From assembly GCF_008065135.1 (NCBI RefSeq), contig NZ_CP042914.1, forward strand, positions 3,038,001 through 3,102,000: a DNA stretch of 64,000 bases, read 5' to 3'. The notes below the pieces were generated by a model. It made no database searches and was not told the origin of the DNA. It saw only the letters and a list, made by a program, of their open reading frames with translations. Both the position numbers and the translations under genes were made by a program. Below are positions 1 through 4,753 of this stretch, one piece after another. Every line of letters starts with the position of its first letter. Position 1 is the stretch's first letter. The DNA comes from Roseimaritima ulvae. GTDB lineage: Bacteria; Planctomycetota; Planctomycetia; Pirellulales; Pirellulaceae.

Positions 1-705
1 GTGTGCACAGCCGGGTATCGTGCGGAGGCGTGTGACCACGGGATCGTCTTTTGACCGTTCGATGATTTGGACTTCGAGGTCATTCATTCGCGTTGTCCAT
101 CGCTCCAGTTCATCGAGGTGCCAGTCCATCTCGGCGCGTTCGCAGGGCGGTAGCTCGACAGTCTTCAGCCAGGCGATCGCACGGACGCTAGGGAACGTCT
201 TGGTCGGCATCTTCCACTGGAGGTTATGCTTGCGAAGGATGTTCTTGATGCGGTTGGTTGCTCGCGTTCGCACTCGTCCGGCGTCTTTGCGCAATAGCGT
301 GATCCGTTGACTTTCGGCATGGTGTTTGGATGGCAAGATGACCTGACGGACACCACGAACGGGCTCTCCAGCTCGCAGGCGATGTTGGTTGACCCAAAGT
401 AGCTCTGAGAGCGCGTGGGCATCCCGTTTGTCTGTTTTGACCTTTAGCTTTTTGGTGGGCTGGATGAGGATGGTTTGAGTGCAGCCAACGGTGGGTAGGA
501 ACTTGAGGAGCCAATCGTTGAAGCCGCAGACTTCGAGGATGGCGATGAAGCCTTCGTCGCCAGCCTTGTCTCGCAGCTTGGCAAAGAATTCTGCGCATCG
601 CTTGGGCTCGGTGGATACCTGCCGCTTGAGAACGATGTCGCCGGCATCGTTGCGAAGAGAAATGGTGAGTTGCTTTGCGTGCTGGTCGATTCCGAGGTAC
701 AACAT
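1..705 (-). CDS. IS110-family transposase (DEDD recombinase), N-terminal part, cut by left edge
   Basis: The minus frame starts at ATG 705 (MLYLGIDQHAK) and stays open for 235 codons to the window edge. It covers the RuvC-like DEDD domain of IS110 transposases: D7 in LGIDQHAK, E58 in AILEVCGF, and D92/D95 in KTDKRDAHAL, at the usual spacing. A conserved RATNRIKNILRKHNL helix follows, leading into the coiled region. The C-terminal Transposase_20 domain with its catalytic serine would lie left of the window. In this family the protein acts with a bridge RNA encoded in the element's non-coding end to choose the target. The upstream region at 706-800 is strongly structured and could be that RNA gene. 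The family assignment is firm; intactness cannot be judged. Confidence 0.93.
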   Translation of the reverse strand, partial: MLYLGIDQHAKQLTISLRNDAGDIVLKRQVSTEPKRCAEFFAKLRDKAGDEGFIAILEVCGFNDWLLKFLPTVGCTQTILIQPTKKLKVKTDKRDAHALSELLWVNQHRLRAGEPVRGVRQVILPSKHHAESQRITLLRKDAGRVRTRATNRIKNILRKHNLQWKMPTKTFPSVRAIAWLKTVELPPCERAEMDWHLDELERWTTRMNDLEVQIIERSKDDPVVTRLRTIPGCAH

Positions 706-710
706 GGGTA

Positions 711-799
711 GGTTCTCCGAGAGGGACGTAGTTCAATTTGGGTGTCGATTTTCGCGAAAGCGAGAGACGATCGCTCGTCTCCCATCATCTCGGAGAACC
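711..799 (-). ncRNA. Candidate bridge RNA region of the IS110 element
   Basis: The 89 bp just upstream of the transposase start are closed by a perfect 12-bp inverted repeat (711-722 with 788-799). Inside are two further hairpins: TCGC-GAAA-GCGA at 752-763, and a 7-bp stem at 764-770/775-781 with a TCGC loop. IS110-group elements encode a structured bridge RNA in the left non-coding end upstream of the transposase. Location and orientation fit, but the target- and donor-binding loops have not been matched. A structured 5' UTR is the alternative. Confidence 0.4.
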
Positions 800-834
800 G
801 TTTTTCGAACCACAACTCTTTCATCGACATCGAT

Positions 835-910
835 TCACACGGAGCACGGCTTGCGCGGTTTCACAAATGGAAACATCACTCTCCGTGCCCGGTGATGGCA
901 AACGTTATCG
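835..910 (+). other. attC site 0, truncated by the IS110 element
   Basis: L'' (TCACACGGAGCACGG, 835-849) pairs with L' (CCGTGCCCGGTGA, 884-896) if two A residues bulge out, as in normal attC folding. The core GTTATCG is at 904-910. No R'' box is found before L'': it is replaced by DNA adjoining the IS110 end. Confidence 0.7.
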
Positions 911-3425: not shown

Positions 3426-3704
3426 TTAAAGGTCGCGACTTGCATCCAGTATTCGCGCGACATCTACGCCATTGGCGTTCGGTCGAAAGAATATGACATA
3501 GCGGCTGACCGTAAATGATCGGCAACCCGGGACACCAAATCCGTTCCGCGATTCACCTAACCCAGGGTTCTCCGCAAGGATCTGGCAAGCTTCTTCAATT
3601 CGCCCCAACATTTTTATGGCTGCCGCGACATTGCGTTCTGCGATGTACTCGCTGATACCCGCAATGTCGGCTTCGGCCTCGTCCGATAAAATAAACGTTG
3701 GCAT
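3426..3704 (-). CDS. parE: ParE/RelE-family toxin (cassette 5, reverse-oriented)
   Basis: A 92-aa toxin of the ParE/RelE fold. It starts with the family's typical LSDEAEADIAGISEYIAERN helices, followed by GRIEEACQILAENPGLGESR and a C-terminal strand core CRSFTVSRYVIFFRPNANGVDVARILDASRDL. ParE proteins inhibit gyrase and RelE proteins cut mRNA on the ribosome; which applies here cannot be told from the sequence. The gene lies two bases downstream of the antitoxin stop, so the two are co-translated. Both genes run against the direction of the array, so they need their own promoter. Such pairs are thought to stabilise integron arrays against cassette loss. Confidence 0.9.
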   Translation of the reverse strand: MPTFILSDEAEADIAGISEYIAERNVAAAIKMLGRIEEACQILAENPGLGESRNGFGVPGCRSFTVSRYVIFFRPNANGVDVARILDASRDL

Positions 3705-3706
3705 CG

Positions 3707-3943
3707 TTACGATTCGCTTCGTTCTTCCAGCCGGGCGCGCAGGCTCGCGAATGCTTCATGCCCGTCTCTACAATCACCATCGTCGATTTGCTCGAATCCC
3801 TTTTGTACCTCTTCGGCCAAAGTTTCCTTGGCCTGGAGAAGCCGCAGACTTTCCGCCAAAACCTCGTGCTCAGACAGAAATCGCCGCCTCGCCAATAGCG
3901 ATGCGATAAAAGCCTCAAATTCTTGCGGGACGTCAACGGCCAT
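3707..3943 (-). CDS. parD: ParD-like antitoxin (cassette 5)
   Basis: A 78-aa antitoxin, the partner of the toxin gene directly downstream. The N-terminal MAVDVPQEFEAFIASLLARR with FLSEHEVLAESLRLLQ resembles the ribbon-helix-helix DNA-binding domain of ParD/CopG-type antitoxins. The charged C-terminal part would wrap the toxin. Start ATG 3943 is chosen because a strong AAAGGAGA lies a few bases upstream; the frame extends further to 3976 without a better start. ParD proteins repress their own operon together with the toxin, so an operator is expected between 3943 and attC 5. Confidence 0.85.
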   Translation of the reverse strand: MAVDVPQEFEAFIASLLARRRFLSEHEVLAESLRLLQAKETLAEEVQKGFEQIDDGDCRDGHEAFASLRARLEERSES

Positions 3944-4018
3944 GGTAATCTCCTTTATGGGCTCCAGTGTACTCAATCACCAGGGCTTGCACACTGGCTC
4001 CCGAAAGTGGTCATTCCC

Positions 4019-4212: not shown

Positions 4213-4422
4213 ATGACACTTCAAGAATCTCTTCGTGCGTTACCGCCCGATCAAAAACTCGCGATCGTTACGGAACTTTGGGATGACTTAGCGGCATCAG
4301 CCCCGCTGACATTGCCAGAAGACGAACTGGCGGAGATGAACCGCAGACGCGATGAACTGTTGGCCAATCCAGAAATTGCAATTGATTCCGACGAAGTATG
4401 GCGCCGCGTTGATGGCGACTGA
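4213..4422 (+). CDS. Addiction-module antitoxin of the TIGR02574 type (cassette 6)
   Basis: A 69-aa protein matching the putative addiction module component family: LRALPPDQKLAIVTELWDDL, then PLTLPEDELAEMNRRRDELLANPE, and a conserved end DEVWRRVDG. Members neutralise a RelE/ParE-type toxin encoded directly downstream. Here the toxin frame would begin at ATG 4412, overlapping this stop, but it is broken by a nonsense codon. The start ATG 4213 is the only sensible one and lies about 110 bp into the cassette. The antitoxin itself looks intact. Confidence 0.85.
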   Translation: MTLQESLRALPPDQKLAIVTELWDDLAASAPLTLPEDELAEMNRRRDELLANPEIAIDSDEVWRRVDGD

Positions 4423-4753
4423 ACGCTAACATCCACTCTTCGCGAGCGACTTGGCGGCTGCATGCTCGTATTACGAATCGATTGCCGAAACGCTCGGGAA
4501 TCGATTTCGCAGTAAAGTCCGCTCGATCATTCAAGCGGTAGTCGAGCGTCCGGAATCATTCGGTCGGATCGGTGGTGATTTTCGCGGTGCGTTCGTTCAT
4601 CGTTTCCCCTATGTGGTTGTCTTCACTAACGATGGTGGCATTCCTACAATTTTCGGTCTGCGACACGCTGCGTCCGACCGCAGAGATTGGTTTAGTCGTA
4701 CGATGTCATCAGCGAGCGGCGAACCAGACGATGCACGTGAGTCGCCGAGTTGA
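4412..4753 (+). pseudogene. RelE/ParE-family toxin with a premature stop (cassette 6)
   Basis: From the expected overlapping start ATG 4412 the frame reads MATER, then TAA at 4427-4429, then HPLFASDLAAACSYYESIAETLGNRF and on to a stop at 4751-4753. The part after the stop is a recognisable RelE/ParE toxin: the AAACSYYESI helix, VERPESFGRIGG, then FRGAFVHRFPYVVVFTNDGG and FGLRHAASDRR, which carries the family's basic C-terminal residues. The nonsense codon falls just before the conserved N-terminal HP. Translation could restart at TTG 4451, but that would lose the first strand. The C-terminal 12 codons run into the next attC. A sequencing error at 4427 is the alternative explanation. Confidence 0.75.

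What the first reader, a model, noticed from the sequence alone, without database searches (positions are those of the whole stretch)
1..910. IS110-family element abutting a broken attC, with a candidate bridge RNA
attC site 0 has L'', L' and core but no R'', and IS110 DNA lies where R'' should be. IS110/IS1111 relatives that target attC are known. The 89-bp structured block (711-799), with a 12-bp closing stem just upstream of the transposase, sits where bridge RNAs are encoded. If its target loop matched attC, it would explain the insertion choice.
Basis: partly seen in the sequence, partly recalled or inferred. Interest (0 to 1): 0.75.

Follow-up and report, generated by a model that had tools for sequence, protein, structure and literature searches.

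The report
RNA-guided transposon that targets integron attC
A mobile element in a planctomycete appears to carry its own guide RNA, whose short guides match the integron recombination sites (attC) into which all four of its copies have inserted, and in related elements guide and insertion site have changed together, so nature has already retargeted this system many times.

Summary
In detail: an IS110-superfamily element (1,745 bp; its left 832 bp lie in the window) splits an attC between L'' and R''. All four genomic copies sit at the same attC position and orientation, and rejoined flanks give normal attC lengths. Its nearest relatives are also in attC. The 711-799 hairpin has no match to the target, is kept in relatives with other targets, and buries the transposase ribosome-binding site. 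The guide RNA lies downstream of the transposase, outside the window (genome 3037211-3037556, about 346 nt). It holds a segment complementary to the right flank (AACCATGCG for CGCATGGTT) and one matching the left flank. Across 13 elements each, guides match their own flanks at 7.9/9 (right) and 4.3/5 (left), against 3.6 and 1.5 for swapped partners (0 of 200,000 permutations). attC-targeting IS1111 elements guided by seekRNAs are already known. New here: a separate, Pirellulales-centred transposase clade, a guide RNA about twice the published sizes, and many natural reprogrammings. RNA expression and transposition are untested.

The parts
1..832 (-). Left 832 bp of the 1,745-bp IS element (whole element genome 3037088-3038832). 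The remaining 912 bp, with the transposase C-terminus, the guide RNA (genome 3037211-3037556) and the right end, lie outside the window.
   Evidence: Alignment of four copies, 97-99% identical, diverging exactly at this border
1..705 (-). First 235 of 366 residues of the DEDD transposase (gene ends at genome 3037605)
   Evidence: PF01548 and PF02371; NF033542 'IS110 family RNA-guided transposase' 172 bits, cut-off 140
711..799 (-). Hairpin over the transposase translation start: stem arms 788-799 (5') and 711-722 (3', contains the Shine-Dalgarno GGAG). Probably translational control; not the guide RNA.
   Evidence: Fold z -2.7; equivalent SD-containing stem in most of 19 relatives, whatever their target; no target match
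814..823 (-). Left subterminal inverted repeat TGAAAGAGTT (partner AACTCTTTCA at genome 3037092-3037101)
824..832 (-). Left tip of the element, CGATGTCGA, identical in all four copies
   Evidence: element/target border at 832/833
833..910 (+). Remnant of the interrupted attC: L'', loop, L', R'/core (GTT at 904-906). Its R'' is at genome ~3037075-3037087, on the other side of the element.
   Evidence: Rejoined site has an 80-bp AAC-GTT span, like intact attC

Best explanation
An IS110-superfamily element with IS1111-type layout inserts into attC because a guide RNA encoded downstream of its transposase pairs with attC. [quoted passage not shown] a left guide (TTGCAT, just before a conserved TGAT) matches the left target; both change together with the insertion site in relatives; a further segment (AAGGAATG, AAGGGATG or AAGAGATG) follows the element's own right end (CAGGAA, CAGGGA, CAGAGA). 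Inferred from the published IS110/IS1111 mechanism: the transposase binds this roughly 346-nt RNA, the element leaves as a circle, and the RNA brings the circle junction and the attC together for recombination between L'' and R'' (target TGCAY|NNCATGGTT). The insertion separates R'' from the rest of the attC hairpin, which probably locks that cassette end. The hairpin at 711-799 probably restrains transposase translation.
For: 4/4 own copies at the same attC position and orientation with different flanking cassettes. Relatives at 82, 80 and 68% identity also in attC. Right guide against right flank 7.9/9 matched versus 3.6 for swapped partners, left guide 4.3/5 versus 1.5, 0 of 200,000 permutations each, n = 13; nine strictly different programmes alone: 8.0 versus 3.6, 1 of 200,000. 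Elements found later through the RNA and not in the test: 9/9, 9/9, 8/9, 8/9, 6/9. In this element the downstream region holds 10/10 complementarity to the right flank, reached in 1 of 1000 shuffles; the upstream region does not. RNA folds with z = -3.3; the helix closing the target loop is stronger within than between elements.
Against: No RNA, circle or transposition was measured. Guide positions were anchored on flanking motifs that were recognised while reading the sequences, and a few were placed by hand. Relatives in the test are not fully independent. Copy D has a drifted left guide (TTTCAC) and left matches are only 4 of 5 in own copies. The right-hand donor guide is not convincing in this element. 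The 14-nt target occurs 1,077 times with up to 3 mismatches and about 113 times with up to 2, so pairing alone does not fully explain four of four in attC.
Confidence: 0.93

Rival explanations
1. The upstream hairpin (711-799) is the bridge RNA, as in IS110-type elements such as IS621, and its loops recognise attC and the donor ends.
For: Position just upstream of the transposase; stable fold, z = -2.7; IS110-type elements do encode their RNA there (PMC11208160).
Against: Best match to either half of the target is what shuffles give. Loop sequence differs between own and TBK1r although both target attC, while the stem is kept in relatives with other targets and always contains the ribosome-binding site. 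The downstream RNA accounts for the target in every testable relative.
Confidence: 0.03
2. The transposase protein recognises the folded attC hairpin itself (structure-specific insertion), and the RNA match is secondary.
For: All attC-group copies sit at one point of a folding site; four of four in attC although attC are only part of the sites matching the guide.
Against: Relatives with the same architecture insert in non-attC sites that match their own guides. Occupied attC match the guide at 11-13 of 14 positions, although many intact attC match as well.
Confidence: 0.05
3. The four copies spread by cassette shuffling or homologous recombination between attC rather than by transposition.
For: All copies lie in integron arrays, and the genome has two complete integron integrases.
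Against: Similarity between copies stops at the element ends; attC halves and neighbouring cassettes differ in all four. The same attC position is used in other genera.
Confidence: 0.02

Closest known systems
IS1111-attC elements (ISKpn4, ISPst6, ISPa25, ISPa21) with seekRNA
   Same: Insert at one end of attC; guide RNA downstream of the transposase; segment complementary to the top strand precedes the bottom-strand segment; subterminal inverted repeats (PMC11187229, PMC11616780).
   Different: Transposase only remotely similar to the IS1111 reference tested here (IS4321: 25% over 143 aa) and longer (366 aa, against 330-350); RNA about 346 nt by paired ends, against 70-100 nt (long form 145-170); found in Pirellulales. 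ISKpn4 itself could not be fetched, so the exact attC position was not compared.
IS621 / ISCro4 (IS110 group) with bridge RNA
   Same: DEDD transposase with sequence match in the C-terminal half; an RNA with separate target and donor segments.
   Different: Their RNA is upstream of the gene (177 nt in IS621, PMC11208160), and IS110-type guides are in the reverse order (PMC11187229).
Group IIC-attC introns
   Same: Another mobile element that uses attC as landing site (literature); a group II intron is present in this very array.
   Different: Unrelated retroelement and mechanism.

Membership tests
IS110/IS1111 superfamily | DEDD transposase with both characteristic domains and the G--P----SG motif | tested here: met
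   PF01548, PF02371 and NF033542 over their cut-offs; GLTPGVNDSG in the translation
[quoted passage not shown]
   Sequence covariation only; RNA not measured
IS1111 family | Longer non-coding region downstream of the transposase | tested here: met
   127 bp upstream, 517 bp downstream
IS1111 family | Top-strand complement precedes bottom-strand match in the RNA | tested here: met
   Right guide precedes left guide in the elements read
IS1111 family | Subterminal inverted repeats of usually 11-13 bp (7-17 in another source) | tested here: inconclusive
   Perfect 10 bp; 12 bp with two mismatches (and sequence)
IS1111 family | Terminal extensions of 7 (or 6) and 3 bp outside the repeats | tested here: not met
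   9 and 4 bp with the 10-bp repeat (7 and 2 if the repeat is taken as an imperfect 12 bp)
IS1111 family | Transposase of 330-350 aa related over its full length to IS1111 members | tested here: not met
   366 aa; alignment to IS4321 only in the C-terminal part, 25%
IS110 group (IS621-like) | RNA encoded upstream of the transposase | tested here: not met
   Upstream region has no target match; guides are downstream
IS1111-attC group | Insertion at one position and orientation in attC | tested here: met
   4/4 own copies and relatives
IS1111-attC group | Common descent with ISKpn4/ISPst6 transposases | not tested
   No ISKpn4-type sequence was retrieved (one search returned only IS4321/IS5075)

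The most novel reading that the evidence does not exclude
A separate lineage of RNA-guided transposases, centred on Pirellulales, uses a guide RNA about twice as long as the bridge and seek RNAs described in the papers read here, with target and donor parts in a larger scaffold. It came to target attC independently of the gammaproteobacterial IS1111-attC elements and has been naturally reprogrammed to at least nine targets.
Probability: 0.5. Interest if true: 0.7.

Novelty: new variant of a known kind. Interest (0 to 1): 0.6.

Why it matters
RNA-guided insertion into integron attC would not be confined to the known gammaproteobacterial elements. One transposase clade here supplies a ready set of natural guide/target pairs on a large RNA scaffold, useful for working out how RNA size, guide order and donor recognition vary in this superfamily. 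It also suggests that planctomycete integron arrays are repeated landing sites for mobile elements, with likely effects on cassette mobility.

Tried and rejected
Upstream hairpin as bridge RNA: rejected on match statistics and conservation. Rfam: nothing matches the element even at E up to 1. One alignment with RNAalifold over each RNA subgroup: the subgroup-I alignment was too divergent to give a structure, replaced by a closer set and an arm-swapping test. A reference tree of transposases was not built, because few references of certain class could be fetched. Search of 392 genomes sampled across the phylum found no relative in other genomes at E <= 1e-50; relatives came from the family and order searches and one partial hit labelled Saprospiraceae MAG, possibly misassigned. 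A candidate right donor guide for this element (CGTATCCGATAGATAG) did not convince and is not claimed. Tetu and Holmes 2008, the primary IS1111-attC paper, is not held.

Full report
The window is positions 3038001-3102000 of a closed 8.2-Mb chromosome; relatives by search are Pirellulaceae planctomycetes. The genome has two complete integron integrases, at 2.88 and 3.00 Mb, and several attC arrays; the window starts inside one of them.

The element. Three other copies, 97-99% identical, lie at 2.88, 3.38 and 5.90 Mb. Their alignment gives an element of 1,745 bp, genome 3037088-3038832, ending at window 832. It has one gene, a 366-aa transposase with both IS110-superfamily domains. Non-coding DNA is 127 bp upstream and 517 bp downstream of the gene. 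A 10-bp subterminal inverted repeat (TGAAAGAGTT/AACTCTTTCA) lies near the ends.

The target. Seventy-nine intact attC were collected from the arrays; the search admitted AAC-to-GTT spans of 76-84 bp, nearly all are 78-82, and many have an L''-R'' stretch of the form TGCAN-NN-CATGGTT or close to it. All four copies interrupt an attC at this point in the same orientation, and rejoined flanks give spans of 78-80 bp. Flanking cassettes and attC sequences differ between the four, so they are separate insertions. Copies in R. europaea 6C (82% protein identity), G006 (80%) and TBK1r (68%, two copies) also sit in attC (two of these by inspection of the flanks rather than by the span test).

The guide RNA. 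More distant relatives of the order (about 40-57% identity) sit mostly in other sequences. Their downstream region keeps recognisable landmarks. A segment between such landmarks is complementary to the right flank: AACCATGCG for CGCATGGTT here, AACCATGTG for CACATGGTT in TBK1r, ATGAAGCCG for CGGCTTCAT in G123, GTTGCATCG for CGATGCAAC in L059, ATGTGGCG for CGCCACAT in L062, CAGCCCA for TGGGCTG in L060, TGGTCCA for TGGACCA in L068, TGTGCCA for TGGCACA in L056. A second segment, just before a conserved TGAT, is like the left flank (TGCAC in TBK1r, TTCA in G006, GCTTC in L062, GGGTC in L055, AGCC in L056). In permutation tests the right guides match their own flanks at 7.9 of 9 against 3.6 for swapped partners, and the left guides at 4.3 of 5 against 1.5, with 0 of 200,000 permutations reaching either value. 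Caveats: the landmarks were recognised while reading the sequences, some anchors were set by hand, and the elements are related to each other. Elements found afterwards through the RNA sequence and not used in the test give 9/9 (L095), 9/9 (L091), 8/9 (L089), 8/9 (L093, a new programme) and one poorer case, 6/9 (L087).

Donor recognition. A segment AAGGAATG, AAGGGATG or AAGAGATG follows the last bases of the element (CAGGAA, CAGGGA, CAGAGA) in most relatives. A counterpart for the left end is visible in TBK1r (CATCGAAA against CGATTTCGATG) and G123 but not clearly here. The RNA therefore resembles a bridge RNA with target and donor parts. Judged by its paired outer ends it is about 346 nt (-119.5 kcal/mol, z = -3.3); in TBK1r the outer stem has a different sequence that still pairs (CTTTGAA/TTCAAAG, sequences). 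The helix closing the target loop is better within than between elements. Published sizes are 177 nt for IS621 (PMC11208160) and 70-100 nt, with a long form of 145-170 nt, for seekRNAs (PMC11187229). True transcript ends here are unknown.

The upstream hairpin. Its 3' arm carries GGAG shortly before the start codon. Most of 19 elements inspected can fold the equivalent SD-containing stretch into a stem, whether or not they target attC. It has no match to the target. Control of transposase translation is the likely role, by inference; transcripts starting at a circle-junction promoter would also contain it.

What is open. The 14-nt guide target occurs 1,077 times in the genome with up to 3 mismatches and about 113 times with up to 2; attC are only part of these. 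Four of four copies in attC hints at further selectivity, through DNA structure or through loss of insertions elsewhere. Copy D has drifted in its left guide. No experiment exists for this element.

Compared with the known. IS1111-group elements that target attC, guided by seekRNA, are known (PMC11187229; also PMC11616780 for IS1111-group insertions in attC). Layout and guide order here are IS1111-like. The transposase is distant from IS4321 and from IS621/ISCro4 and longer than IS1111 transposases, so membership in IS1111 is not claimed. I rate it a new variant of a known kind.

Noticed in passing
L041:14018-15860 (genome ~3034018-3035860), upstream of the window: A group II intron (RF02005, 105 bits) followed by a reverse-transcriptase-like ORF lies in the same cassette array, a few kb before the IS element; possibly another attC-associated element.
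   Followed up: partly
L087, L089, L095, L086: Deletion derivatives in related genomes that keep the guide RNA and right end but only fragments of the transposase gene, like non-autonomous elements; L087 keeps both ends (about 630 bp).
   Followed up: partly
L051, L058, L059 (element ends): Joining right and left ends gives TTGACA-17 bp-TATCTA, a strong promoter-like site at the circle junction; the corresponding site of the window element looks weaker.
   Followed up: no
G000 2.68, 2.88, 3.00-3.05, 3.38, 5.90 Mb: Several attC arrays in one chromosome with two complete integron integrases and partial ones; identical attC types recur in different arrays.
   Followed up: partly
L052:RE (downstream positions 406 and 451): Tandem duplication of the right end in one G123 copy.
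   Followed up: no
window 3426-3976 and 4213-4753: Cassette genes that read like ParE/RelE-type toxins with small partner genes, by eye from the ORF translations.
   Followed up: no
L059, L066, L068, L070 flanks: Insertion sites of several non-attC relatives look palindromic; they may be other repeated hairpin sequences.
   Followed up: no
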